Source: a virus. From it: a DNA stretch of 20,065 bases. Made by a program: the position numbers and the translations under genes. The DNA lies in IMG/VR virus record IMGVR_UViG_3300025769_001143, positions 1-20,065 of that record; one strand, given 5' to 3'. The notes under the pieces are model-generated. The model did not search any database, was not told where the DNA came from, and worked only from the letters and a program-made list of their open reading frames with translations. This document shows positions 138 to 16,183 of this stretch, piece by piece; within the stretch, counting starts at the first letter, position 1, and every line of letters begins with the position of its first letter.

Positions 138-441
138 CATATACTACTTCAATATCATGTGAATGAGCGTCATTAACCTTTGCCCATACTGCGTTGATAG
201 GTGCAACACTAAACTGAAAGGTAGCTGCTAAATCTCCTACAGTAGTACTACCGTCTAAATTAAGACCAGTAGTAGGGGCTGTAGTATTATCACTAAATCC
301 TATAGTAATAGAATGGTTGTCGTGGTCATTTTGAATACATAAGTACATACGGCTAGGGTTATCGTCTAATATCTTTACCCAAGATTGGTCAGCAGGTAGC
401 GTGACACTCTTAGCTGTTAGACTAGCGTTATGTCCTCTCAT
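130..441 (-). CDS. Small beta-rich virion-type protein between TerS and TerL
   Basis: A 103-aa protein with no signal peptide or TM segment. It alternates short hydrophobic beta-type stretches with polar loops: SVTLPADQSWVKIL (residues 12-25), MYLCIQNDHDN, SITIGFSD, then a TTG.NLDGSTTVGD segment and a C-terminal AVWAKV...DIEVVY strand. The pattern (a residue set after ASLTAKSVTL, then NPSRMYLCIQN and ITIGFSD) resembles small phage proteins I know as virion-associated or decoration-type, but I cannot name a family. Its ATG overlaps the TerS stop as ATGA and its own stop overlaps the TerL start, so translation is probably coupled. In T7 the space between gp18 and gp19 holds spanin genes; here a soluble beta protein occupies that place. 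Function is unknown. Confidence 0.72.
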   Translation of the reverse strand: MRGHNASLTAKSVTLPADQSWVKILDDNPSRMYLCIQNDHDNHSITIGFSDNTTAPTTGLNLDGSTTVGDLAATFQFSVAPINAVWAKVNDAHSHDIEVVYDD

Positions 442-653
442 TGTACACTCTCCGCTACCTCAAAGGGTAGGTCTTTTAACAGGTTGTCCATAGGACTTTC
501 TGCCATGATAGCATCAAGACTAGCCCCATTGTCCTTGAGAAACTTGACAGCTACTGACAACTCTGACGCTGTGGCCTCGCCACTACGTACTCGTAGTAGC
601 AAGTCCTGTGTTACAGCATCGTGCAAATTGTCTATCAGTTCTTTTTTACTCAT
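438..653 (-). CDS. Terminase small subunit (TerS, T7 gp18-like)
   Basis: A 71-aa protein proposed to recognise the concatemer and hand it to TerL for packaging. It begins MSKKELIDNLHDAVTQDLL, followed by RSGEATASELSVAVKFL, then KDNGASLD and an acidic tail. The helical N-terminus and the G-E-A-T-A-x-E-L...FLKDNG block are what I recall from small terminases of marine T7-like phages; T7 gp18 is somewhat longer (89 aa). An upstream in-frame GTG at 659 is possible, but AGGAG lies about 7 bases before the ATG at 653, which I prefer. That ATG overlaps the endolysin stop as ATGA. Position two genes before TerL supports the call. I would not call the function from sequence alone without this context. 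Confidence 0.75.
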   Translation of the reverse strand: MSKKELIDNLHDAVTQDLLLRVRSGEATASELSVAVKFLKDNGASLDAIMAESPMDNLLKDLPFEVAESVQ

Positions 654-1063
654 TGCCACTCTCCTGTACGTATCTGCTCAGTGACTTCTACTGCACGTTG
701 GCCTACTTGTTTAGCCCACCTGCTCTGTAGAAACTCGTCTGCCGCCATATCGTACTTTCCGTCCTTTAGCAGAGCCATTGCGTTTACGAACTTTGCTACT
801 GTCCCTATCCCTACGTTGAAGGTGAAGTTGATAAGGGCTGCGAAACGTACCTCGTCTAGGTCTTTCGTCCACGCAAACCTGCGTGTCAGTTGTGTCACTG
901 CCTCTTGTATGTCGTGTTCTAGAAGCATTTCTGCTTCTTTCTCTGTTATACCAACATCGTCTAAGTTTCTTCCAACACCGATAGTACATTTGCCCTGCGT
1001 ACAGAAATAAGGTTTAAGTTTGACACCCTCGTGCCGCTTCAACTGTTCTATTAACTTTGTCAT
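650..1063 (-). CDS. Endolysin, GH24 (T4-type) lysozyme
   Basis: A 137-aa muramidase predicted to cleave the N-acetylmuramic acid to N-acetylglucosamine bond of peptidoglycan during lysis. The catalytic region is KRHEGVKLKPYFCTQGKCTIGVGR (shown in two pieces: KRHEGVKLKPYF at residues 9-20 and CTQGKCTIGVGR at 21-32). Against T4 lysozyme, Glu12 matches Glu11, Thr27 matches Thr26, and Cys21 stands where T4 has Asp20, so the triad reads E-8-C-5-T. Later family features are also present: ALINFTFNVGIGTV (around residues 79-92) and the C-terminal QSRW...VGQRAVEVTEQIRTGEW. There is no signal peptide or SAR segment, so a holin is probably needed for release. T7 uses an early amidase (gp3.5); here the enzyme lies in the late region. 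The ATG overlaps the stop of the 48-aa gene (ATGA). Confidence 0.93.
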   Translation of the reverse strand: MTKLIEQLKRHEGVKLKPYFCTQGKCTIGVGRNLDDVGITEKEAEMLLEHDIQEAVTQLTRRFAWTKDLDEVRFAALINFTFNVGIGTVAKFVNAMALLKDGKYDMAADEFLQSRWAKQVGQRAVEVTEQIRTGEWQ

Positions 1064-2949: not shown

Positions 2950-3126
2950 CTAGTTAGTTCGTCTGATGTTTTGCATAGGTTGTTGGTTAGGTGATGTAGC
3001 CCCAGAGGTACTACCACGTGTAACTTTCTTCTTCTTAATTCCTAACATACTTAGGATACCGCCCTTAACCTTTGCATAAGTTTCACCAAACCCAGCAGGT
3101 TTAGTTCTTACTTTATAGTTTGACAT
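2950..3126 (-). CDS. Small basic protein, unknown
   Basis: A 58-aa protein starting MSNYKVRTKPAGFGETYAK, with KVKGGILSMLGIKKKKVTRG in the middle and a polar Gln/Asn-rich tail (NQQPMQNIRRTN). No TM and no recognisable domain. A longer in-frame start at 3141 exists, but the ATG at 3126 overlaps the stop of the 49-aa TM gene (TAATG) and has AAGGAC shortly before it, so I chose 3126. Its place directly after a holin candidate is where T7 keeps its small terminase, but the sequence does not look like one and a better TerS candidate exists at 438-653. Confidence 0.6.
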   Translation of the reverse strand: MSNYKVRTKPAGFGETYAKVKGGILSMLGIKKKKVTRGSTSGATSPNQQPMQNIRRTN

Positions 3127-3275
3127 TACTTGTCCTTCCACATCTTATATATCTTAAATCCTAAGTAGCAGATGGACATAACCCCTACTACCAAAGCTAC
3201 CCATTGGTTTAGAGCAGGTAGCCACAGAGGTGCAGTCATACCACCACCAGCAAGTATTATATCGTTCTGGTTCAC
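3126..3275 (-). CDS. Putative small holin, T7 gp17.5-like
   Basis: A 49-aa protein found by reading the gap between two clear genes. Its start is GTG at 3275, which overlaps the stop of the preceding fibre-type gene as GTGA; GGAG lies 8 bases before it. The sequence begins (M)NQNDIILAGGGMTAPLWLP, then ALNQWVALVVGVMSICYLGF (one TM) and ends KIYKMWKDK. T7 gp17.5, the type II holin, also has a LNEW segment leading into its TM and a basic KM..WKK tail (from memory), and it also follows the tail fibre gene. Position, a single strong TM and a basic C-terminus all fit a holin. With the 127-aa protein at 1305-1688 this gives two holin candidates. Confidence 0.7.
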   Translation of the reverse strand: MNQNDIILAGGGMTAPLWLPALNQWVALVVGVMSICYLGFKIYKMWKDK

Positions 3276-3817
3276 CCTGCAATCTCCATGACTATTATTG
3301 AAGAACAGGCAGTGACTCTGGAACTATTGCTGGTTGAGCTATCATCTGCTCTGTTTACAGACCAGCCTGAACCACCAGTAGCGCTACGTTGTGCGCCTTG
3401 TATCTTTATAGTGGTAGCACTGGTTGTCCCAGCGTTAATTATTCCACTAAAACTTCCTGTAGAAACTTCATCATCGTTTGTTACCCAACCTACTGTGCCG
3501 AATGTACCAGATGGTCTGCTATCTCCTGTCGTGCCTAAAAGGTTTGTAGTGTTTCCGTCTTGAAGAACTCTGAACATAACACCCCAATCGTGATGACCAA
3601 CAGAAACTGAAGCTGTTATAAGCAATTTGCTTGAAGATGATTTAGGGGTTAAAGTAACCGACATTCCTGCAATATCTTGCCAACCCTGACTAGCAGAATT
3701 TGTATAACCGTTCTGCGTATTGTCTACATTACTGACCACCTGCAACACAGTGCCACTGGGCAACCCTGCGCTAGTAACAGCAGACAAAGACTGATTGTTT
3801 AGTTTTGTTAAAGCCAT
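3272..3817 (-). CDS. Tail fibre tip / receptor-binding-type beta protein, copy 4
   Basis: A 181-aa beta-rich protein and the last of the small fibre-type genes. Residues 1-12 (MALTKLNNQSLS) form a short N-terminal foot. The distal domain shows the pattern shared with the genes at 3828 and 4909: a Gln-Val-Val strand around 26-28, LTPKSSSSKLLITASV (56-71), a TTSATTIKIQG strand (131-141) and the closing SSIIVMEIAG (172-181). Serine, threonine and glycine are abundant and there is no signal peptide, as usual for phage fibres. I infer binding to a host surface feature; no fold-defining catalytic residues are seen. GGGAG lies 8 bases before the ATG. The stop overlaps the start of the 49-aa holin candidate. 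Confidence 0.72.
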   Translation of the reverse strand: MALTKLNNQSLSAVTSAGLPSGTVLQVVSNVDNTQNGYTNSASQGWQDIAGMSVTLTPKSSSSKLLITASVSVGHHDWGVMFRVLQDGNTTNLLGTTGDSRPSGTFGTVGWVTNDDEVSTGSFSGIINAGTTSATTIKIQGAQRSATGGSGWSVNRADDSSTSNSSRVTACSSIIVMEIAG

Positions 3818-3827
3818 GTCAGTCTCC

Positions 3828-4328
3828 CTATTGCCTAATCTCAGTGAGTATCATTATGCTGGGGTTGCCATTTTCATGTGCTTTTCCTGCATCTCCACTA
3901 GCTTCTTTAGCTTGTATTTTGTAGGTAACAGCACTAGTTGTAGCTGGCTCATCAACCCAAGAAGTTGTGAAATAAGTCCTTGTATTATGATAGCCAGTCA
4001 TTATTCTCATTCCATCTGAAGTAGGGTCTAATTGTGTACTGTCTCTAAAAATGTGTTCATAAAGACTTGCACTAGACGAACTATCAACGCCATTATATTG
4101 AGTACACCACTGCACCAATATTTTACTGTTAGAATATTTAGGTGTGATTGTTGCGTACAATCCAGTATCTTGAAAACTGGTTGATAAATTAAGCTCTGTG
4201 TCATAGGTGTTGGTGATAATCTGCACAACACTATTAGCACCCATATCAACGTTACCACTACTATCAATGGTCAACGCACTAGTTCCAGAGGAGTTCTGGA
4301 TGTTGTCTACTTTTAATACTGAAGTCAT
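3828..4328 (-). CDS. Tail fibre tip / receptor-binding-type beta protein, copy 3
   Basis: A 166-aa protein with an N-terminal foot MTSVLKVDNIQNSSG...TIDSSGNV (residues 1-27) that is clearly related to the foot of the next upstream gene (4338-4898). The distal part belongs instead with the genes at 3272 and 4909: VVQIITNTYDTE (34-45), ITPKYSNSKILVQW (61-74), IFRDSTQL (93-100), TTSAVTYKIQA (120-130) and the end IMILTEIRQ. The mixed affinity of its two halves suggests modular exchange. AGGAG lies 6 bases before the ATG. Predicted role: part of, or accessory to, the distal host-binding tip. Exact receptor unknown. Confidence 0.72.
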   Translation of the reverse strand: MTSVLKVDNIQNSSGTSALTIDSSGNVDMGANSVVQIITNTYDTELNLSTSFQDTGLYATITPKYSNSKILVQWCTQYNGVDSSSSASLYEHIFRDSTQLDPTSDGMRIMTGYHNTRTYFTTSWVDEPATTSAVTYKIQAKEASGDAGKAHENGNPSIMILTEIRQ

Positions 4329-4838
4329 CCTTCTCTCCTATTGTACATCTGCTATTCGTTCAAAAGAACAAACAGTTTGAGCGGCACTTGAACTAGCACC
4401 ATAAATTTGCGAACTTCCAGTTAAGCTTGAAACGTTAAATCTATATTGACAGTTAGATATATCATCTACATTAAAGAAATCTAAAAGCGTAATTGCGCCT
4501 GTGCTTGTACCGCCTGATGAATTACCTTCACTTGCTCTAACGTGAATTATAAAACTTGAGCCGCCATCATAACTAGCATTACCTTCAACCATTACAGTGC
4601 TATCACCGCCTTGATGAAGCATCCTACAAGAGAGCATAATCCTGTATACGCCTGTCTTAGCAAAACTAAAAACACCAGAAGAATGGGTTACAGGGTTGTT
4701 ACCAAATGTTGACAACTGTTTTGACTGTTGGGGGCTTCCCCAAGATGTCATAACCCCATCAGATGTTTGGTCACTGAGCAAAGACAACATTAACATTGAG
4801 TATGTGTTGTCCATTGCAATAGAGCCACTACTATCAAT
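4255..4838. repeat. 14-base direct repeat joining two fibre genes
   Basis: The bases CCACTACTATCAAT occur at 4255-4268 and again at 4825-4838, in the same orientation and in equivalent positions of two neighbouring fibre-type genes, where they encode part of the TIDSSG foot. Flanking bases have diverged. Such a shared block next to unrelated distal domains is a possible site for homologous exchange, though it may simply reflect common ancestry. Confidence 0.45.
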
Positions 4839-4898
4839 CGTAGCGGCTGTAGTGCCGTTTGTATGTTGGAGCGTTTCAACGCCTAGTATACTTGCCAT
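4338..4898 (-). CDS. Fibre-type protein with a jelly-roll (C1q-like) distal domain
   Basis: A 186-aa protein. Its foot, MASILGVETLQHTNG...TIDSSGSI (residues 1-27), matches that of the downstream gene at 3828-4328, but the rest differs. Residues 50-100 read TSWGSPQQSKQL, then GVFSFAKTGVYRIMLSCRML (75-94), followed by Gly/Ser-rich loops and a terminal strand TVCSFERIADVQ. The G-x-F-x-F...TGVYRI motif and the C-terminal aromatic strand are typical of C1q/TNF-like jelly rolls used as trimeric tips in phage fibres; the assignment to that fold is by pattern only. AGGAG stands 8 bases before the ATG. Predicted to bind the host surface as an alternative or additional tip. Confidence 0.7.
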   Translation of the reverse strand: MASILGVETLQHTNGTTAATIDSSGSIAMDNTYSMLMLSLLSDQTSDGVMTSWGSPQQSKQLSTFGNNPVTHSSGVFSFAKTGVYRIMLSCRMLHQGGDSTVMVEGNASYDGGSSFIIHVRASEGNSSGGTSTGAITLLDFFNVDDISNCQYRFNVSSLTGSSQIYGASSSAAQTVCSFERIADVQ

Positions 4899-4908
4899 TG
4901 ATTATCTC

Positions 4909-5463
4909 CTATCCAGCTATCTCTGTTACACATATTAATGATATGCCACGCTCTGCATTAACACTATCTGCATCTGTTACGCCTCTATTTAAGTACCAAC
5001 TTGTATCAGGTTGACTATGATTTACACCCACCTTGTATGTTATTTGAGAGGTAGTATTTGGCGCATCAAAGTAACTATAATTTACTTGTTCTGGTGTGGA
5101 TGAAGCGTCTACGGCTTCATAAGTTAAAGCTGAACCCATCAAAATACCAACTTTTCTACTGCCAGAAGCAGGTGCAGATAGTTTTGTTGAATCCCTATAA
5201 AAAAACCAAGCAGAGTTATAAGCCGCACCATGATCGCCCCACTCACCATTTACCATTGCTTCAATCTTAATGATGCTGGAGGATGACACAGGCGTAATGT
5301 TTACAGATAACACACTTATTTCTGTGTCAGTGTTTGAGGTACAAGAAATTGATGACGTTGAACTAAGCTGTGTGTATTGCGTTTGAATAATACCACCTTG
5401 TGGCATCATAATTTTATTACCAGCAGTTTTAGGTGCTAGCTCATCTACATATAACTTGCTCAT
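4909..5463 (-). CDS. Tail fibre tip / receptor-binding-type beta protein, copy 2
   Basis: A 184-aa protein with its own foot type, MSKLYVDELAPKTAGNKI (residues 1-18), followed by MPQGGIIQTQYTQL. The distal domain has the family landmarks: DTEISVLSVNITPVSSSS (46-63), VNGEWGDHGAAYNSAWFFYR (71-90), DSTKL (91-95), NTTSQITYKVG (136-146), a WYLNRG segment and the end SLICVTEIAG. It therefore shares its distal domain with the genes at 3272 and 3828 but not its N-terminus. The ATG abuts the preceding stop (TAAATG). Likely a component of the distal adhesion apparatus. Confidence 0.72.
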   Translation of the reverse strand: MSKLYVDELAPKTAGNKIMMPQGGIIQTQYTQLSSTSSISCTSNTDTEISVLSVNITPVSSSSIIKIEAMVNGEWGDHGAAYNSAWFFYRDSTKLSAPASGSRKVGILMGSALTYEAVDASSTPEQVNYSYFDAPNTTSQITYKVGVNHSQPDTSWYLNRGVTDADSVNAERGISLICVTEIAG

Positions 5464-5934
5464 TTAAACCACCGTAAACGTGCCGTTAATAGTTAAGTCA
5501 CCATTCAGAGTGAACGGACCAGCTACCATAGCATTCTCATCTGCTGCAATTGTTACATTTGCACTACTTGCTAAGGCAGTGTCATTTACACGAATTGCAT
5601 TGTTTTTCATAATACTGCTGCTCATCTTATTAATATCTACCGAGCCATCAGTAGGGGTTACTGTATTACCTACTTCGCCTAAAGCGACAATAAAGTCAAT
5701 ACTGTCACCTGTTACTAGGTTCTCTGAGAATGTAATCGTTGAGCCTGACACTGTGTAAGCATCGATAGGGGCTTGGATAACACCGTTCACTGACACGATA
5801 AGCTGTTCAGCAGTAGCTGGTTTGAAGTTCGCACTGTTGTACTGCATTGTGTAAGCGGCCTGACCGTTTACCACACTGATGCTGTCTAGCTTTTTAAAAA
5901 GCCCACTAGAGGGGGCTACACCAATATAGGGCAT
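5464..5934 (-). CDS. Fibre adaptor-type protein, short
   Basis: A 156-aa protein. Residues 1-90 look like an attachment domain: MPYIGVAPSSGLFKKLDSIS, then AAYTMQYN, QLIVSVNGVIQAP (residues 44-56), YTVSGSTITFSENLVTGD (60-77), then IDFIVALGEVG. A linker with TPTDGSVDINKMSSS (93-107) follows, then a short beta tail ending GPFTLNGDLTINGTFTVV. The I-V-S-V-N-G-V...Y-T-V-S-G-S-x-I-T-F pattern is also present in the 266-aa protein at 6784-7584 and, more distantly, in the N-terminal domain of the gp17-like fibre. I infer that it bridges between fibre parts. AAGGAG precedes the ATG at good spacing. Confidence 0.68.
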   Translation of the reverse strand: MPYIGVAPSSGLFKKLDSISVVNGQAAYTMQYNSANFKPATAEQLIVSVNGVIQAPIDAYTVSGSTITFSENLVTGDSIDFIVALGEVGNTVTPTDGSVDINKMSSSIMKNNAIRVNDTALASSANVTIAADENAMVAGPFTLNGDLTINGTFTVV

Positions 5935-5944
5935 TTATTTCTCC

Positions 5945-6199
5945 TTATGGTTTCGTAGGCCATACAACATCATCTAGTGATGTGTAGCTGTCGGTTATGT
6001 CACGCAATGCTTGGCGATAATCTGTTTGCTCTTGGGTCATAGTGCGGTCAGACAAAGCCCATACATCTGTTTCAGCAAGCAATTTGTTTCGCATTTCTCT
6101 TAAAGCCTCTAGCTTTTCTTCTGCTGTGGGTGTTGGTTGAGTGTATGTTCGTGTTGATGTTTCGCCAGTTACGGCATTTACAAGTTTTTCTGTTGCCAT
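5945..6199 (-). CDS. Putative tail assembly chaperone (Phage_tail_APC-like)
   Basis: An 84-aa protein: a variable N-terminus (MATEKLVNAVTGETSTRTY), then a helical region EEKLEALREMRNKLLAETDVW (residues 27-47, in two overlapping helices), DRTMTQEQTDYRQALRDITDS (51-71) and a short VVWPTKP end. The R-x-x-R-N-x-L-L-A-E-T-D-W/V and Y-R-Q-A-L-R-D-I spacing is what I know from the C-terminal domain of tail fibre assembly and tail assembly chaperone proteins (Pfam Phage_tail_APC). Such proteins help fold or attach fibre tips. It is the only all-helical protein in the fibre region, and it sits among the tip genes, which fits a chaperone role. Confidence 0.68.
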   Translation of the reverse strand: MATEKLVNAVTGETSTRTYTQPTPTAEEKLEALREMRNKLLAETDVWALSDRTMTQEQTDYRQALRDITDSYTSLDDVVWPTKP

Positions 6200-6205
6200 A
6201 ATTAC

Positions 6206-6772
6206 CTACCTATAAAATACTCTAGCAGTTCCTTGATTATATGTTCCAGTTTGAACACTCATGGAAATTCTGTCGCATTCTGCTGAAAGGTCTATCTTGC
6301 TGTAGACTCTATAGATTCCATCAAAGCTGACATTTATTTGCATTGCTGTTTGTGATTGCCAAACATGACCAGACAAATCAGAACAATAACAATAACAATA
6401 TCCATCCCAATCTGTAGAACTGCCCCAATTACCGAGGTCAACGAGTGCGTCAGTTACACTTGCTGATGCGTGACTATTACCAGCATAAACATATTCATAA
6501 GTAGTCACATATCCACTGGTAACTAACCCACCACTTGTTCCTAATCGTATTCTTGGGTACGCATTAGAATTGGCACTATGACCGACATTATTCCATGTCA
6601 TCATTATCTCTCTTGTTCCAGATGGGATGCCAGTAACAGTGTGTGAGGCACTGTCTAGTGTTCCTATAGCCGCACTTTCAGTCCAGTCTTTACCAGCACC
6701 GCTTACAGTACCAGTGAACGCATAAGTATCAGCGAGGTTCATGCTTTCGGCTTGTATTTTAGATAATGCCAT
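6206..6772 (-). CDS. Fibre-type protein with IPSGT / LGTSGG domain
   Basis: A 188-aa protein. Residues 1-25 (MALSKIQAESMNLADTYAF, then TGTVSGA) form a foot of a type common at junctions of phage fibre proteins. The distal domain shows HTVTGIPSGTREIMMTWNNV (44-63), YPRIRLGTSGGLVTSGYV (72-89) and a C-terminal strand pair DRISMSVQTGTYNQGTARVFY. This follows a family I recall from many phage tail proteins: GIPSG.k.I...., LG.sGG...sGY, and a final d.gs..i.Y. A striking YCYCYC run lies at 125-130, encoded by a perfect triple hexamer. GGGAGG lies shortly before the ATG. Predicted to take part in host binding. Confidence 0.72.
   Translation of the reverse strand: MALSKIQAESMNLADTYAFTGTVSGAGKDWTESAAIGTLDSASHTVTGIPSGTREIMMTWNNVGHSANSNAYPRIRLGTSGGLVTSGYVTTYEYVYAGNSHASASVTDALVDLGNWGSSTDWDGYCYCYCSDLSGHVWQSQTAMQINVSFDGIYRVYSKIDLSAECDRISMSVQTGTYNQGTARVFYR
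6383..6400. repeat. Three perfect copies of a hexamer inside a fibre-type gene
   Basis: ACAATA is repeated exactly three times on the plus strand (TATTGT x3 on the coding strand), encoding Tyr-Cys three times at residues 125-130 of the 188-aa fibre-type protein. Gain or loss of one unit keeps the reading frame and adds or removes one Tyr-Cys pair. No other perfect hexamer triplet was noticed in the neighbouring genes. Confidence 0.8.
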
Positions 6773-6783
6773 TAGAGCCTCCC

Positions 6784-7584
6784 TTATGCGTCATCTGTTT
6801 CGTAAGTTACAGTCAAATTGAGCGTATCGCCACTAGCCCATGTTATTGGGTTTGTTGCATTTACATCTGAGTCATCTGTTCTTCTTTGCACATAGATTAC
6901 GTTTGTATTGTTTTCATTCATTTTACCGTGAACAGAGTGCCATCCAGTTCCATTGTTCCATATTATTCCATCAACAGGGAAGTAACCATTTGATGCCCCC
7001 GATACCAATTCAACAGAGGTAAAAGGTAGTCCAGTAACGGCTGTTAAACCACCACCAACAGAGCTTGTAGAACCAAATTCAAAACCAAACCAGCAAGTAA
7101 CGATATCACCTATTCTTATATATCTTCCATAAACGCTACCATTACCTACAGTGAAGTTAGTAAAAGTGGGCGTAAATGTACCAGTGCGATAAAACGCATT
7201 GCTATTAAGGTCAGTCATCTTAAATGTAGATGATGTTGTTTCTATACCTATAGGCGTATCTAGTTTAGCTGTAGTCACAGCACCATTAGCCAGCTTGCCT
7301 GTACTTACAGAACCATCTGGTGGCACTACAGTCTGCAATGCCTTGCCTTGATAAATAACGTAGAAGTCATCTGTGCTTGCCACATTGCCTGTCATACTTA
7401 GTGCAGTGCCAGCCACAGTGTAAGCAATACCAGCTTCCTGACGCACATTGTTTACAAACACCTCAATCTCTTGGGCGTTAGCTACAGCGTGGGTCAGTGT
7501 GTAAGACGCACCACCGTTACCAGTGATAACTTGTTTGTCCATTGAGGAGTAACTATTTGTAGTTTGATTACCTACATATCCCAT
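6784..7584 (-). CDS. Fibre adaptor protein with GTFTPT...GLPF distal domain
   Basis: A 266-aa protein in three parts. Residues 1-85 resemble an attachment domain: MGYVGNQTTNSYSSMDKQVI, then ASYTLTH, EIEVFVNNVRQEAGIAYTVAG (39-59) and FYVIYQGKALQTV. A linker PPDGSVSTGKLANG...TTAKL (88-108) follows. The distal domain carries GTFTPTFTNFT (135-145), YGRYIRIGDIVTCWFGFEF (152-170) and TAVTGLPFTS (181-190), a pattern I recall from many phage fibre and spike tips (GTWTP..., G.Y.kiGd.V, isGLPF). It ends in beta strands (LNLTVTYETDDA). AAGGAG precedes the ATG. Predicted to be a side fibre or a second fibre segment docking through its N-terminus. Confidence 0.76.
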   Translation of the reverse strand: MGYVGNQTTNSYSSMDKQVITGNGGASYTLTHAVANAQEIEVFVNNVRQEAGIAYTVAGTALSMTGNVASTDDFYVIYQGKALQTVVPPDGSVSTGKLANGAVTTAKLDTPIGIETTSSTFKMTDLNSNAFYRTGTFTPTFTNFTVGNGSVYGRYIRIGDIVTCWFGFEFGSTSSVGGGLTAVTGLPFTSVELVSGASNGYFPVDGIIWNNGTGWHSVHGKMNENNTNVIYVQRRTDDSDVNATNPITWASGDTLNLTVTYETDDA

Positions 7585-7594
7585 TGTCTACTCC

Positions 7595-7930
7595 TTATGA
7601 ACTGATTGCATCAACAGCAGATACCCAACAGTCTAGTGAACTTGCTGTGTCTGATTTAATCCAGAGCCTGTCACCTGATTGGACTACTACCTTTGCACCA
7701 CCATCAAGTACCTGTAACGCACCGCCAGCAGCGATAGGCGCACCCTTGACTAGATAGATATCGTTAGTTCCATCGTTGATGTAGCAGTCTACATTGATTG
7801 CGTTGTTTGTAATGTTTGTCATGTGGATACCTACAATCGTATCGTAGCTATCAAAGTTAGCCCCATCAGGAATATCTGCGGCTGCTGTGCCGACAGCATT
7901 GAGGCTGTATCGTCTAAAATTCTGTGCCAT
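7595..7930 (-). CDS. Conserved beta-rich virion-associated protein (MAQNFRRYS type)
   Basis: A 111-aa protein beginning MAQNFRRYSLNAVGTAAADI, with strands TIVGIHMTNIT (32-42), INVDCYINDGTNDIYLVKG (45-63), a PIAAGGALQVLDGGAKVV turn region (65-82), then VVQSGDRLWIKSDTASSLD and CWVSAVDAI. I recall many marine phage proteins with the same opening and the same order (VGI...NI....I.VDV.I.DG....YLVK.API..G..L.V......V...GD.L.V.SDTASS.D...S..EI). They are virion-associated in some phages, with role not precisely known. It sits between the main fibre and the adaptor fibre and has AAGGA before its ATG. A neck, baseplate or fibre-collar role is possible. Confidence 0.74.
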   Translation of the reverse strand: MAQNFRRYSLNAVGTAAADIPDGANFDSYDTIVGIHMTNITNNAINVDCYINDGTNDIYLVKGAPIAAGGALQVLDGGAKVVVQSGDRLWIKSDTASSLDCWVSAVDAISS

Positions 7931-7939
7931 TGTTTATCC

Positions 7940-9178
7940 TTATAGGGCAATCGACATGGCTATACTAAAGCCAGCCGTAGCAAAGTTTGAAGTATTGACA
8001 GCCGCTATGTCTGTCCAGCTAGTTCCATCGTAGTATCGAACTGCATTTGTAGAGGTTGAGAAATACAAGTCCCCAGCAGCTACAGTGTTTCCAGCGTTTG
8101 TATGGGCTGTCTCAGCGTCTGTGTCGTTTGCGTATGTTCCGTAGTAGACTTGGTTAAAGTCTGCCACTGCATTAGCTGCATCTATTGCATAAGCTCGTGC
8201 TGACTTGTGTGTACCATCTACTGTACTAGTACCAGATACATAGCTTGCCCAATCTTTAGCTGAGTGTGCGCCAGCAGAACCTCTGTTCATATCACCTACA
8301 GCATAAGCCTTACTAGATAGTTCAGTACCATCCACTGTAGAGTTAGACGCTTTTGTTGCCCACTCTTGAGCAGCACCAGCACCTGATTGATTTGTAACAC
8401 CTGTACCACCTGTTGCCCATGCTTTAGATGAGTAGCCAGTACTTGCTACAATACCGTTGGTTTTAGTAGCCCACTCTTCAGCTTCGTCAGCAAATCCACT
8501 AGCTTCACCAGCTTTAGTTGTAGCTGTTGTAGCATTAGCTGATGCGTTTTGAATAGCTGTTATGTTAGCAGCGTTTGTGTTGATTGAAGCTATGTTAGTG
8601 GCGTTAGTGTTTACGTTAGTAATGTCTGTAGCTACTATACCAATGTCTGCTTGGTCAGCTACTACTGCTGTGACATCACTAGCAATACCTGCAACAGTTG
8701 TTACTTCTGTGCTAATACCTGCAACTGTGTTGATGTTAGGCAGGTTTGTAGAAATAAATTGCTTGTTTACAGCATCTGTATTATTAACAGGGTCTCCAAC
8801 ATTTTTAATAATATTTCCTTGTGCATCCCACTTATTATCAGCACCTAGAGTAATACCATCGTTAGATTTGTCCACAGCTTCCTGTGCAGCGTGGAAGGTC
8901 TGGATGTTAGAGTTATCCAAATCTTCTTCTGTCAGGACTGAGCCAGAGGCAAAGTCTACTGAACGTGCTGTAAGGTCTGTGGTTCTCCGCACCTGCACAA
9001 GCGTACCTGTAGCAGGAGCAGAGGTTAATTGAACACTAGCAGCAGAAGGAAAAGTCAGGCCAGTTTCAGCCACACCGTCTACTGTTACACTAATCTCAGA
9101 CTGAGCAGTGAAAGTAAAGGGGATAGCGAAAGTGTCAGTCGTGTTATCCCCTGTATAGTTTTGATATGAAAAAGCCAT
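7940..9178 (-). CDS. Tail fibre protein, T7 gp17-like, with repeat shaft and no large tip
   Basis: A 412-aa fibre. The N-terminal attachment domain (residues 1-145) is T7-type: FSYQNYTGDNTTDTFAIPF, then SEISVTVDGV, TLVQVRRTTDLTARSVDF (59-76), SGSVLTEEDLDNSNIQTFHA, AAQEAVDKSNDGI and NKWDAQGNIIKNVGDP (114-130), closely parallel to T7 gp17. Next is an Asn/Thr-rich heptad-like segment (residues 148-226) with 10-residue NTNA repeats, then three repeats of about 37 residues (residues 231-335). The C-terminus (345-412) has YYGTYANDTDAETA and AGDLYFSTSTNAVRYYDGTSW. T7 gp17 is 553 aa and ends in a large tip; none is present here, so downstream genes probably supply it. AAGGA precedes the ATG. Confidence 0.9.
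   Translation of the reverse strand: MAFSYQNYTGDNTTDTFAIPFTFTAQSEISVTVDGVAETGLTFPSAASVQLTSAPATGTLVQVRRTTDLTARSVDFASGSVLTEEDLDNSNIQTFHAAQEAVDKSNDGITLGADNKWDAQGNIIKNVGDPVNNTDAVNKQFISTNLPNINTVAGISTEVTTVAGIASDVTAVVADQADIGIVATDITNVNTNATNIASINTNAANITAIQNASANATTATTKAGEASGFADEAEEWATKTNGIVASTGYSSKAWATGGTGVTNQSGAGAAQEWATKASNSTVDGTELSSKAYAVGDMNRGSAGAHSAKDWASYVSGTSTVDGTHKSARAYAIDAANAVADFNQVYYGTYANDTDAETAHTNAGNTVAAGDLYFSTSTNAVRYYDGTSWTDIAAVNTSNFATAGFSIAMSIAL
8174..8488 (-). repeat. Three tandem repeats of about 37 residues in the fibre shaft
   Basis: Within the gp17-like fibre, EEWATK, QEWATK and KDWASY place tryptophans at residues 236, 273 and 310, exactly 37 apart. Each is followed about 15-17 residues later by YSSKAWA, LSSKAYA or KSARAYA, with TVDGT between in copies 2 and 3. 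The repeats are diverged in sequence but regular in length (about 111-114 bases), as expected of a trimeric shaft that can lengthen or shorten by whole units. Confidence 0.75.
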
Positions 9179-9218
9179 TGCTTATCCTTCTGTGTTTAGT
9201 CAATGATGTAACTTTAGG

Positions 9219-12565: not shown

Positions 12566-15500
12566 TTATTCTCCGAATACGTTATCATAGATAGAGTTAA
12601 AGCCTTTGCTAATTTTATCCATAGCTTTGCGTCCATACTTTCCAGCTTTTAACTGTAGCATAGATGGTAGACTTTCAGAAGGTATATCGCTTGCGCCTTT
12701 TATACGTCTAAAGCTTACATCTTCTTCTGTCATGTTGTAATCAGAAAGCTCTACTTTATCACCAGTATTACCACCAATAAAGTACACAGTATCACCTTCT
12801 ACTTTTGCAACAATGCCAACGTGTGCTACACCAAGCTTAAACTTCTTACGGTCTTCTGCGCTGTGCATCTTAATCATAATGTCACCAGCTTGTACCTGTG
12901 GTGCTTCAACAGCATCACCAGCTTTCAAGTAAGAAGCAGCACGTACTTGGTTAAACTTATCCTTACCAAGCAAGCTACGTGTATCTACGCCTGAATCTCT
13001 TAGAACCTGTGTTAAGAAAGCAGCGCACCAAGCTTTACTTGTTGCAAAATCTTCAACACTCTGTTCGTCAGGATTCCAATCACCTACAACATTCTCAAAG
13101 AAACCTTTGACAGCAGCAGCACCTTCTTCAGTATTCTCATCAATACCTAGATACTGATAAGCTACGTCAGCAGGGTTCTTAGCTGTAGCAATAGCAGCTA
13201 CTGCCTCTGCTTCTGGCTTCTCACCAATGATAGCAGGTTTAAGGTCAGACGCTTCTGCCTTAGGAATAATGCTTTCTATTATAGCACCACCAGCAGCTTC
13301 AATGTTCTCAGCAGCATCAGCAGCCATACCTTCAGCCATTCTCATAGCCCTGTCAGCAGTCTGTGTAGCCCATTTAGTAGCTGTTACAGCACCATCTTCT
13401 GCTACATTGTATAGCATGTTAAACTTAGCTTTAGCAAGTGCAGCTATCTGTTCAGCAGAACCTTCTGCATACTGCCCAGCTTCTTTGATGGACTCCATAA
13501 ACTTAGGCCACTCGTTAGCTACGTTTTCTTTACCTAGCTGATATGCCATACTAATAGCAGATACCTGTGAGGATTCTGGTAGATTACTAAAACCTTCTAC
13601 AGTATTATTCCACCAATCACCAAGCTTACTTACCTTTACGTTTAGTACTGCCTTTGCTTCTGCTTCTGTAACATTGTTAATGTCAGAAATCATAGCACGT
13701 TCATCAGGCTCTAGGCTTTCAATTTGAAAACCATAACCTACTGAGTCTTTACCCATGTCATCATAAGGAGAAGCTTCAAAGCCTTCCTCATCAATCAATG
13801 TAGAAGCAGCAGCTTCTTTAATACCTAAAGCACCCTTAACCAATGAACCTGTAGTTTCCTTTACTTCATCTACAAGTGCTTGCTCTTCAGCAGTTCTATT
13901 AGCCTCAGCTTTGACAAGAGAACCTAAGTAAGGCGTTGCTTTCTTGGCTGCATCTATAATAGAGTTAGTAGCCTGTTGTGGTAGTGATAGGTATGCTTCG
14001 TCAGCATCATTAGAGAGTGTAATGTCACCTGTTTCTTTATCAACATTAAAGAGTGGTGGGTTCTCTACAAACCACTGTCCAAGATTATCTAACACACCAA
14101 CCAAGTCAGACAGAGCAGGTACACCTTCTACACCTGCACCACCTAATAGGTACTGATTAAGAGAAAGGTCTTGCTCTAACTGGCCTTCAACAGTAGCACC
14201 AGAAGTAGACATCGTACTGATGTCAGGTGTCGTAGCAAGTGATACATCATCAGGAATAACCAAGTTAGCTACAAGATTATTTAGCTGTTGTCTGTCAGTA
14301 AGTAGGGTTACTTTATCTATCTTACCAGTAATAACACCAATATCAGTTACCTGTCCATCTTGTTTTCTAAACGCACGAATGACAGCGTTCTTAGGATTGG
14401 TAGGGTCAGGTTGTACCTGTAGCACAAAATCTTTCGCTCCAAACTTTTCAAGCATATACTTCTTTACTTGAGGTAAGGCTGCAAGTGTTTCGTTGTACTC
14501 AGTTACAATAGTTGCTACATCAAATGCTTTATCCATACCTGTGTTTAGGTCTTTAAAAGCATAAGGAGTACCATCACTTGACGTAGGTATCTGATAATCT
14601 TTCTTAACAATGTTAGCAGCTTTCTGAATCAACTCTTCAGGTGTACCACGTTCTCCTAGTATAGACAAAGCTTCGTAAGCTTTAACTACAGCGTTTTCAA
14701 CGTCAGCCGTGTCATAGGTTTCTGACAAATCAGTACCAAATACATCAGCAAAGACACCTGCCTGTAGTGCGTCTGTTACTTTAGCTCTAGTATCTTTATC
14801 AAGTTTGACAAGCCTATCTTCATCAAGACCTTGTATCTGCATAGCAGCGTTGCCAAAGTCTTGAACTGTTAGTACGCCTGTTTGTGTATCCATCTCTTCC
14901 TCGTACTGAGGAATTTGAATAGTACCTACATCAGCTTGGTCAAAGACTTTAAATGCTAATAGGTCATAACGTAGTTTCTGGTCATCAGTTAGCTTCAGGT
15001 CAAAACCAGAGTTCTTCATCATAACATACATCTGCAAGCCCTGTTGAACTTTCTTAAATCCTTCAGGGGTAGTGGGGTCTCCTGATACAAGAAGAGTAGC
15101 ACCATCATTTACAAAAGCTGAAAACTTTGTAGGCGTGATACCAGCATCTCTGAACATGTCTAACTGCCCACCAAGACCTAGACCCTGTTCTTTTGCGCTT
15201 GCAAACAGAGCATCTTCTATTTCTTTAGCAGTGTATTTTACAGTTGTTCCATCTTGCTTTTTGTAACCAACACCTTCAAATATGCTACCTCTTCTGTTTA
15301 GCTTAAACTGTTCAATAGCACCTGTCAGTCCTGTAGCTTTAGCGTTATCATTAAATTGTTTTGTTCTAAACGCAGCTTGTTTAACAGTAATGTTATTTGA
15401 TTGCTGTGTGTAACGAGACTTACCTAATTGGTTCATAGAATAATTAGCGTCTTGTAAGTACTGTGTTACAGCAGAGAAAGGGTCAGAACCTTTTAACTTA

Positions 15501-16183
15501 TCTGACATGTCTACAAGAAAGTCGTTTACCTTGTTATCATTTACTTGAAAGTAATCATTGTTTGCCTGATGAAATTCAGTAAAGTTATTTGCAATTTCTT
15601 GTTTTGCTTCTTCAGCAGTTAGTAGACCTGCTGCTAGTTCTGCGTTAATCTGACGTATACCGTCACCAAAACCTTCTAGCAATACGCCTTGTGTATGTAC
15701 GTACTTAGCAGGGCGAAAGGTCTCACCCATAAATGTTTCAAGACCTAACTCAATGTTCTGGTCAAAGATTTGAATGATGTCATCACCAACACCACTGTCT
15801 TTTAATGTTTGAATATAATCTTGCTTTTGTCCTCTAACGCCATTATATACAGCGTCTTGGTCTTGCGCCAAATAATTCTGTTCATTCTTCTGGTAGTCAA
15901 GAGCAAGGTCTCCCAGAAACTTTCTGGATTGTAACTTTACTTGAAACTCTTTGTTAGCCTGAATACCGTCAGCAATTTCTTTTTCTTTTCTAAGTCTTTC
16001 TAACTTACGCTGTTCTGCTCCTGTTTCAATAGCAGGTGCAATAGCGGTCATAAACTGAGCAAGAGGACTAGGCTGTGAAGCTTGTGAAACAGTCCTAACA
16101 AACGTATCGACAGGGCTTGCTGTTGGTCTAATGTCGGCCTGACTAGGGGCTTGAAACTGTCTTACCTGTGGTCTTTGTGCCAT
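12566..16183 (-). CDS. Internal virion protein, T7 gp15-like, with lysozyme-like and Cys/His peptidase-like domains
   Basis: A 1205-aa inner-core/ejection protein; T7 gp15 is 747 aa. Residues 1-770 are long, charged and mostly helical and carry no enzyme motif. A GH24-like domain lies at about 785-955: EEGFEASPYDDMGKDSVGYG (799-818) gives Glu800, Asp809 and Ser814 at the places of T4 lysozyme Glu11, Asp20 and Thr26, and ADRAMRMAEGM (943-953) matches the family's C-terminal helix. A second domain at about 1003-1162 has AWCAAFLTQVLRDSG (1051-1065), KAGDAV..PQVQAGDIMI (1087-1104), GVAHVGIV (1118-1125) and FIGGNTGD (1135-1142). Cys1053, His1121 and Asn1139 suggest a CHAP/NlpC-type peptidase or amidase. 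Both could open the cell wall during DNA entry. GAGGT lies 5 bases before the ATG. Confidence 0.85.
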   Translation of the reverse strand: MAQRPQVRQFQAPSQADIRPTASPVDTFVRTVSQASQPSPLAQFMTAIAPAIETGAEQRKLERLRKEKEIADGIQANKEFQVKLQSRKFLGDLALDYQKNEQNYLAQDQDAVYNGVRGQKQDYIQTLKDSGVGDDIIQIFDQNIELGLETFMGETFRPAKYVHTQGVLLEGFGDGIRQINAELAAGLLTAEEAKQEIANNFTEFHQANNDYFQVNDNKVNDFLVDMSDKLKGSDPFSAVTQYLQDANYSMNQLGKSRYTQQSNNITVKQAAFRTKQFNDNAKATGLTGAIEQFKLNRRGSIFEGVGYKKQDGTTVKYTAKEIEDALFASAKEQGLGLGGQLDMFRDAGITPTKFSAFVNDGATLLVSGDPTTPEGFKKVQQGLQMYVMMKNSGFDLKLTDDQKLRYDLLAFKVFDQADVGTIQIPQYEEEMDTQTGVLTVQDFGNAAMQIQGLDEDRLVKLDKDTRAKVTDALQAGVFADVFGTDLSETYDTADVENAVVKAYEALSILGERGTPEELIQKAANIVKKDYQIPTSSDGTPYAFKDLNTGMDKAFDVATIVTEYNETLAALPQVKKYMLEKFGAKDFVLQVQPDPTNPKNAVIRAFRKQDGQVTDIGVITGKIDKVTLLTDRQQLNNLVANLVIPDDVSLATTPDISTMSTSGATVEGQLEQDLSLNQYLLGGAGVEGVPALSDLVGVLDNLGQWFVENPPLFNVDKETGDITLSNDADEAYLSLPQQATNSIIDAAKKATPYLGSLVKAEANRTAEEQALVDEVKETTGSLVKGALGIKEAAASTLIDEEGFEASPYDDMGKDSVGYGFQIESLEPDERAMISDINNVTEAEAKAVLNVKVSKLGDWWNNTVEGFSNLPESSQVSAISMAYQLGKENVANEWPKFMESIKEAGQYAEGSAEQIAALAKAKFNMLYNVAEDGAVTATKWATQTADRAMRMAEGMAADAAENIEAAGGAIIESIIPKAEASDLKPAIIGEKPEAEAVAAIATAKNPADVAYQYLGIDENTEEGAAAVKGFFENVVGDWNPDEQSVEDFATSKAWCAAFLTQVLRDSGVDTRSLLGKDKFNQVRAASYLKAGDAVEAPQVQAGDIMIKMHSAEDRKKFKLGVAHVGIVAKVEGDTVYFIGGNTGDKVELSDYNMTEEDVSFRRIKGASDIPSESLPSMLQLKAGKYGRKAMDKISKGFNSIYDNVFGE

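What the first reader, a model, noticed from the sequence alone, without database searches (positions are those of the whole stretch)
3272..7930. Receptor-binding cassette of eight small genes after a short fibre
Where T7 has one fibre gene, this phage has gp17 plus eight small genes, seven of them beta-rich and one a putative assembly chaperone. Three (3272, 3828, 4909) share a distal domain, two more carry other recognisable tip domains, and each has its own strong ribosome site. The layout suggests a branched or multi-part adhesion device, or alternative tips.
Basis: partly seen in the sequence, partly recalled or inferred. Interest (0 to 1): 0.62.

Follow-up and report, generated by a model that had tools for sequence, protein, structure and literature searches.

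The report
Phage fibre kit with swappable tips
This marine T7-like phage seems to build its host-binding apparatus from many small parts, each with a fixed 'plug' end that marks its place and a free end that is swapped between places and between phages, which would let it change what it binds without redesigning the tail.

Summary
The cassette is real, but has nine small genes (3272-7930), not eight: eight beta-rich proteins and one PF16778 chaperone. The branched or multi-part reading is largely supported. Across about 250 related contigs and a few isolates I find an ordered kit. (1) A trunk fibre ending in a C-terminal tag (GFxIAMxIAL) precedes adaptor A: 111 of 117 A genes, whatever the fibre's N-terminus. 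(2) Two holders (B, E) share an N-terminal domain resembling tail-fibre anchors and CBA120 TSP4 assembly domains. (3) Each holder either carries its own tip, or ends in a 'cap' and is followed by three separate small genes, each a conserved ~27-aa leader plus a tip. (4) Leaders keep a fixed order (33/33 contigs), while tips move between positions; near-identical tips (95-98%) sit behind different leaders. Window tip I is predicted as a TNF-like lectin fold. No reverse transcriptase or resolvase was found, so exchange is most likely ordinary recombination. It works like the branched tailspike complexes of Ackermannviridae, built from ~110-270-aa parts. Docking, presence in virions and receptor binding are inferred. 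A new variant of a known kind.

The parts
7940..9178 (-). gp17 trunk fibre, 412 aa: T7 fibre N-domain plus repeats, no distal receptor-binding domain recognised
   Evidence: PF03906 9.2e-34; gp17 <500 aa is followed by A in 17/18 relatives, >=500 aa in 0/16
7943..7972 (-). C-terminal tag of gp17 (GFSIAMSIAL), putative address for adaptor A
   Evidence: 111/117 genes upstream of A end in this kind of tag across many fibre N-termini; strict motif 89/117 against 2 elsewhere in 3165 genes; A identity follows tag type, not fibre N-type
7595..7930 (-). Gene A, 111 aa adaptor; homologues annotated virion structural protein
   Evidence: same place in HTVC019P, HTVC203P, HMO-2011
6784..7584 (-). Gene B, 266 aa holder with its own fused tip (N-domain about 7339-7584, tip about 6787-7242)
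   Evidence: phrog_18673 and phrog_13144; N-domain Foldseek to T7-type fibre N-domains and CBA120 TSP4
6206..6772 (-). Gene C, 188 aa leader-tip protein (leader 6692-6772)
   Evidence: leader identity .86, body .21 among relatives; DNA breakpoint
5945..6199 (-). Gene D, 84 aa fibre-assembly chaperone
   Evidence: PF16778 2.6e-11, above cutoff; phrog_4912 1.2e-14
5464..5934 (-). Gene E, 156 aa tipless holder: same N-domain type as B, ends in the cap
   Evidence: short E followed by F/G-type genes 11/11, long self-tipped E 0/20
5467..5565 (-). Cap of E (...ENAMVAGPFTLNGDLTINGTFTVV), putative dock for F, G, H
   Evidence: same cap at the end of short B and some gp17; 30/30 G-leader genes have a cap within three genes upstream, background 60/1225
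4909..5463 (-). Gene F, 184 aa leader-tip protein (leader 5398-5463), TNF-like tip family
   Evidence: phrog_6942 7e-15; tip 71% identical to a slot-I tip in L015
4338..4898 (-). Gene G, 186 aa leader-tip protein (leader 4812-4898)
   Evidence: leader .85, body .22 in 42 relatives; tip 77% identical to a slot-H tip in L285
3828..4328 (-). Gene H, 166 aa leader-tip protein (leader 4242-4328)
   Evidence: tip 76% identical to the fused E tip of L162
3272..3817 (-). Gene I, 181 aa leader-tip protein (leader 3737-3817), TNF-like lectin fold predicted
   Evidence: AlphaFold pLDDT 81.7, Foldseek to TNF-like trimers

Best explanation
The interval encodes a modular, position-addressed receptor-binding array hung on a short T7-type trunk fibre. 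Proposed assembly: the trunk's C-terminal tag binds adaptor A, and A recruits holder B and, with C, holder E. A holder either ends in its own tip or in a cap on which three separately encoded leader-tip proteins dock. In the window B carries its own tip and E is capped and carries F, G and H; D is the chaperone. Each leader-tip protein has a conserved N-terminal leader that fixes its place and an exchangeable distal domain, most often TNF/C1q-like and probably homotrimeric, that touches the host. Recombination between phages moves tips within and between places while leaders, tag and caps stay, so binding specificity changes without disturbing assembly. Shown: gene order, leader/tip split, tip exchange across slots, cap-trio, tag-A and holder-length associations, TNF-like fold of tip I (prediction). 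Inferred: physical docking, stoichiometry, presence in virions, receptor binding.
For: Order of leader classes conserved in 33/33 contigs. Leaders 53-86% identical, bodies 21-33%; DNA blocks of about 80-100 bp around each start flanked by unrelated bodies. Best tip match lies in a different slot in 59/138 cases; tips up to 97-98% identical behind different leaders, and the tips of window F, G and H each have a 71-77% match in another slot elsewhere. Holder length predicts a following trio: B 11/11 against 0/36, E 11/11 against 0/20, with 3-4 changes of state on the E tree. Caps on other holders also precede leader-tip genes: gp17 in L013, L016, L044, B in L341 and L313; 30/30 G-type genes have a cap upstream against 60/1225 background. 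Tag to A. Tip I: TNF-like lectins, and sequence match to the C-terminus of LME-1 phage orf22, present as 18 chains in a solved portal-tail entry. Same organisation in isolates HTVC019P, HTVC203P, HMO-2011.
Against: No direct evidence that any of these proteins is in the virion or binds a receptor. Tag-A and cap-leader associations involve neighbouring sequence, so physical linkage could create part of them. Many contigs share ancestry, so Fisher p-values overstate independence. Gene calls are from my own script. The B model is poor outside its N-domain (pLDDT 62) and its Foldseek E-values are only 0.006 to 0.05. No multimer prediction could be run. The route A to B to E is a guess from gene order.
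Confidence: 0.72

Rival explanations
1. Independent small adhesins: each small protein attaches on its own to the tail or to gp17. Leaders are generic trimerisation or attachment starts, and caps, tags and trios co-occur only because neighbouring DNA travels together.
For: Tag and A, and cap and F, are adjacent in sequence, so linkage is expected. Tips in a trio are drawn independently, so no joint structure is required.
Against: Leaders are class-specific and ordered (33/33). The cap recurs on three different holders with leader-tip genes behind it. Holder state switched 3-4 times with perfect association. Linkage does not explain why ten residues at the fibre end are conserved across unrelated fibre N-termini.
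Confidence: 0.15
2. Heterotrimeric head: the three leader-tip proteins behind a cap form one mixed knob, as human C1q chains A, B and C do, giving one composite binding site.
For: Three leader-tip genes with three distinct leaders follow each cap in most complete cases; C1q/TNF-type folds are common among tips; x8/x9/x7 tips are mostly one family.
Against: Tip families within an F/G/H trio are no more alike than between loci (F-G .32 vs .26, G-H .21 vs .21, F-H .26 vs .28; permutation p .23 to .63), which argues against obligate co-assembly of the knobs.
Confidence: 0.07
3. Assembly artefact: near-identical leaders in different phages caused short-read contigs to be joined wrongly, creating apparent tip swaps.
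For: Leaders are short conserved blocks of 80-100 bp, a classic place for chimeric contigs.
Against: Window and L002, different IMG/VR records, are 99.96% identical over 9.7 kb including B to part of H; L004 and L005 agree with each other. Leaders behind near-identical swapped tips differ (54-64% aa), so they cannot be the chimeric joint. Leader fourfold sites are only about 57% identical overall. Isolate genomes show the same layout.
Confidence: 0.03

Closest known systems
Branched tailspike complex of Ackermannviridae (CBA120, S117; PMC8825819, PMC8432352, PMC11414711)
   Same: One virion-anchored protein, assembly domains that recruit others, conserved N-termini fixing position, receptor-binding modules exchanged between positions, some hubs without a receptor-binding module (Limestonevirus TSP4).
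   Different: Here the parts are 111-270 aa rather than large tailspikes, in a T7-like podophage; positions are more numerous; fused and split versions of the same holder alternate; no beta-helix enzyme was recognised; tips are TNF/C1q-like.
Metaviromic islands of pelagiphages (Mizuno et al. 2014, PMC3909814)
   Same: Tail fibre, C1q and carbohydrate-binding genes are the hypervariable region of marine phages; conserved fibre N-terminus and variable C-terminus.
   Different: That work reports variability; it does not describe (in the passages read) leaders, slots, tags, caps or movement of tips between positions.
Tail-fibre genes of HMO-2011, HTVC019P and HTVC203P (GenBank annotation)
   Same: Members of the same organisation: fibre with tag (HMO-2011, HTVC203P), A, B, leader-tip genes, E, chaperone.
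   Different: HTVC019P and HTVC203P have long self-tipped E and no F/G/H; HMO-2011 has capped B and capped E, each with three leader-tip genes, in another phage lineage.
LME-1 phage orf22 fibre (PDB 9efk)
   Same: Its C-terminal 160 residues are the same tip family as window F, H, I (6.5e-26 with the profile); 18 chains in the entry.
   Different: There the tip belongs to one 658-aa fibre, not to a separate small protein.

Membership tests
Branched receptor-binding complex with gp10-like (XD) assembly domains | First protein anchored to the virion by a conserved N-terminal domain | tested here: met
   gp17 PF03906 9.2e-34
Branched receptor-binding complex with gp10-like (XD) assembly domains | Hub proteins carry gp10-like XD2/XD3 domains | tested here: inconclusive
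   B N-domain: Foldseek to CBA120 TSP4 (7rfv) prob 1.00, rmsd 2.7 over 65 columns, but E 0.02; also resembles T7-type fibre N-domains; E protein matches K1 depolymerase 9k4a at 1e-6
Branched receptor-binding complex with gp10-like (XD) assembly domains | Receptor-binding modules exchanged between positions, N-termini conserved per position | tested here: met
Branched receptor-binding complex with gp10-like (XD) assembly domains | Physical complex of several receptor-binding proteins in the virion | not testable with these tools
   needs proteomics, cryo-EM or binding assays
Branched receptor-binding complex with gp10-like (XD) assembly domains | Members are tailspikes with beta-helix or depolymerase bodies | tested here: not met
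   no such domain in any of the nine small proteins
TNF/C1q-like trimeric lectin domains (tip of I; F and H by homology) | TNF-like jelly-roll fold | tested here: met
   model pLDDT 81.7; Pgp3 C-terminal domain 1.4e-7, PLTL lectin 3e-5, BC2L-C lectin 2e-4
TNF/C1q-like trimeric lectin domains (tip of I; F and H by homology) | Forms a trimer and binds a glycan | not testable with these tools
   monomer prediction only
Diversity-generating retroelement | Reverse transcriptase present | tested here: not met
   PF00078 absent in the window and five related records; records may be incomplete
Invertible tail-fibre system | Serine recombinase and inverted repeats around fibre ends | tested here: not met
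   PF00239 absent in six records; no inverted repeats in 3272-9200
T7-like phage (RNA polymerase-encoding podophage) | Single-subunit T7-type RNA polymerase in the genome | tested here: met
   PF00940 in 5/5 longer relatives; the window itself lacks that part of the genome

The most novel reading that the evidence does not exclude
Marine phages from at least two lineages share an explicit peptide address code for building receptor-binding arrays: a C-terminal tag recruits the adaptor, a C-terminal cap recruits three leader-tip proteins, and ~27-aa leaders define slots, so any tip joined to a leader is seated at that slot. Tips form one shared pool across slots and phage types.
Probability: 0.45. 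Interest if true: 0.78.

Novelty: new variant of a known kind. Interest (0 to 1): 0.64.

Why it matters
How the most abundant marine phages keep pace with host-surface change is poorly understood; hypervariable tail regions are known, but not their rules. The pattern offers a mechanism that can be tested (tag, cap, leader, tip), explains why many small 'hypothetical' tail genes lie behind short fibres in phages related to pelagiphages, predicts which annotated genes are holders, plugs or tips, and gives cultured test systems (HMO-2011, HTVC203P, HTVC019P). Short address peptides that seat unrelated domains would also interest protein engineers.

Tried and rejected
Leader as DNA recombination hotspot or RNA signal: fourfold-site identity of leaders (C .58, I .57) is not above that of gene A in the same pairs (.54.61), so protein-level constraint suffices. 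Diversity-generating retroelement or invertase: not found. An integrase was found in one of six records only (G003), so it is not part of the system. Heterotrimeric head: not supported by tip concordance. Megablast of the window against 50,697 phage records: no match, so relatives came from IMG/VR. Foldseek on the B tip was uninformative because the model is poor there. The strict cap model scored only 4 of 8 genes upstream of x8 genes; three more look like caps by eye and one is not. Literature searches on 9efk/LME-1 and S-TIM5 proteomics gave nothing usable.
Full report
WHAT IS THERE. The window is a 20,065-base IMG/VR virus record. On the minus strand, gp12, two smaller genes (the second PF24072, T7 gp14 family), two large internal virion genes and gp17 are followed by nine tightly packed genes from 7930 down to 3272, called here A (7595), B (6784), C (6206), D (5945), E (5464), F (4909), G (4338), H (3828) and I (3272). 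gp17 has the T7 fibre N-domain but only 412 residues. D is a tail assembly chaperone by PF16778. F, H and I match the C-terminal part of one fibre family. The finding is real; the gene count is nine, not eight. Five longer relatives carry a T7-type RNA polymerase. Nearest isolates differ by gene: gp12 is closest to LUZ100 and Rhizobium phages (about 42%), gp17's N-terminus and A to pelagiphages. GC is about 42%. The host is unknown, probably a marine bacterium.

LEADERS AND TIPS. Relatives were gathered with gp17, A, the 2483 gene, an x8 gene and G as baits, giving 158 plus 101 non-redundant loci. In the close relative L003, gp17 and A are identical in protein to the window, but the following genes keep only their starts: DNA blocks of about 80-100 bp covering the ribosome site and the first ~27 codons are 85-97% identical, and the bodies between them are unrelated. 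L003 is mosaic elsewhere too (internal virion genes diverge). Over all relatives, residues 1-26 are 53-86% identical against 21-33% for the bodies (G .85/.22, H .82/.22, C .86/.21, I .71/.30, F .53/.24). Leader classes keep one order, B-C-E-F-G-H-I, in 33 of 33 contigs with two or more typed slots.

TIPS MOVE BETWEEN SLOTS. The best match of a tip in another contig is in a different slot in 59 of 138 cases. Examples: L288 G and L342 F, tips 97% identical with leaders 54%; L288 F and L342 H, tips 98%, leaders 63%; L092 H and L102 E, 95%. For the window, F's tip is 71% identical to a slot-I tip in L015, G's tip 77% to a slot-H tip in L285, H's tip 76% to the fused tip of E in L162. In L082/L015 a slot-I leader is joined to an F-type body.

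HOLDERS: FUSED OR SPLIT. B and E share an N-terminal domain type. B occurs long (240-395 aa, own tip) or short (162-170 aa). Short B is followed by the leader-tip genes x8 and x9 in 11/11 loci, long B in 0/36. E occurs long (267-328 aa) or short (154-156 aa); short E is followed by F/G-type genes in 11/11, long E in 0/20. The E tree needs about four changes of state (at least three forced by well-supported branches), so this is not one inherited event. Short B and short E end in the same cap motif (...NAmvaGPfTi..gvTlTVNGtftvv). The cap also ends gp17 in L013, L016 and L044, where leader-tip genes follow directly, and ends a 178-aa B in L341 and L313, where F, G, H follow B. In a sample chosen by G alone, all 30 G-type genes have a cap-bearing C-terminus within three genes upstream, against 60 of 1225 other C-termini. 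Usually three leader-tip genes with three different leaders follow a cap; L341 shows two cap-plus-three sets, the second behind a 78-aa leader-plus-cap protein. In L335 the chaperone lies between them.

TRUNK TAG AND ADAPTOR. Of 117 genes lying directly before A, 111 end in a short tag (GFxIAMxIAL or ..IALG types). The strict form occurs in 89 of these and in 2 other genes out of 3165. The fibres' N-termini are of several different kinds. A-protein identity follows the tag (0.74/0.71 within a tag type, 0.34 between) and not the fibre N-type. Fibres shorter than 500 aa precede A in 17/18 loci, longer ones in 0/16. Many of these loci were fetched with A as bait, so the informative part is the tag's conservation and near-exclusivity. 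Tag and A are neighbours, so linkage may contribute.

FOLDS. The model of I (pLDDT 81.7) matches TNF-like jelly-rolls: Pgp3 C-terminal domain (1.4e-7) and the TNF-like lectins PLTL and BC2L-C (3e-5 to 4e-4). By sequence the tip profile matches the end of LME-1 phage orf22 in PDB 9efk, present as 18 chains in a portal-tail entry (6.5e-26). B-type tips include C1q-like domains (adiponectin 1.8e-8). The B N-domain resembles T7-type fibre anchor domains and CBA120 TSP4, with modest E-values.

MECHANISM. Most likely: trunk tag to A; A to B and onward to E; capped E as the stand for F, G and H; D as chaperone; tips as glycan-binding ends. Recombination at and around leaders swaps tips, and selection keeps leaders because they seat the protein. 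Leader synonymous sites are not unusually conserved, so the constraint is on protein. Tips in one F/G/H set are statistically independent of each other, which favours three separate homotrimers over one mixed head. No reverse transcriptase or resolvase was seen. Shown by sequence: order, leader/tip split, swaps, associations. Inferred: contacts, stoichiometry, virion presence, receptors.

COMPARISON. The closest working analogue is the branched tailspike complex of Ackermannviridae, where XD-bearing hubs recruit other tailspikes, receptor-binding modules occur on different tailspikes, and Limestonevirus TSP4 lacks a receptor-binding module (PMC8825819, PMC8432352, PMC11414711). That marine phage fibre regions are hypervariable and rich in C1q-type genes is known (PMC3909814). 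I did not find the tag, cap, leader and slot rules described, but the library covers open-access papers only. HMO-2011, a SAR116 phage without close relation to the window, has fibre tag, A, capped B with three leader-tip genes, capped E with three more, and chaperones.

LIMITS. Contigs are mostly metagenomic; gene starts are from a script; related contigs are not independent; only two structure jobs were available and no multimers.

Noticed in passing
L341 5474-5710 and L313 6033-6269: 78-aa protein with a MALSKI leader directly joined to a cap, followed in L341 by a second set of three leader-tip genes: a minimal leader-plus-cap linker.
   Followed up: partly
L008 13263-14102, L015 12589-13428, HMO-2011 (L351) 4001-4853: Two conserved genes of about 154 and 121 aa (LWDRLCWAKE... 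and ...VDKDGNQ...NRDFRGAW) lie behind the x8/x9/x7 set in two unrelated phage lineages; function unknown, possibly assembly factors.
   Followed up: no
L014 11740-12771, L163, L085 and others: In many relatives a protein of about 340 aa (MALSKILPASQEQYAGARNLIINGAMQVAQRG) with a 56-74 aa partner replaces gene C and the chaperone D.
   Followed up: no
window 12566-16183: 1205-aa protein in the place of an internal virion protein with a weak CHAP-like match near its C-terminus (PF05257 6e-5, below cutoff; phrog_21357 endolysin 2e-6).
   Followed up: no
window 438-659: 73-aa protein matches PF11123 DNA_Packaging_2 (4.5e-12), probably small terminase.
   Followed up: no
G003 (contig of L015) 2255-2710: A tyrosine integrase (PF00589, 6.5e-29) in one related T7-like contig and not in five others.
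   Followed up: no
window 3126-3275: 49-aa protein with a likely membrane segment directly after I, conserved 78-84% in near relatives.
   Followed up: no
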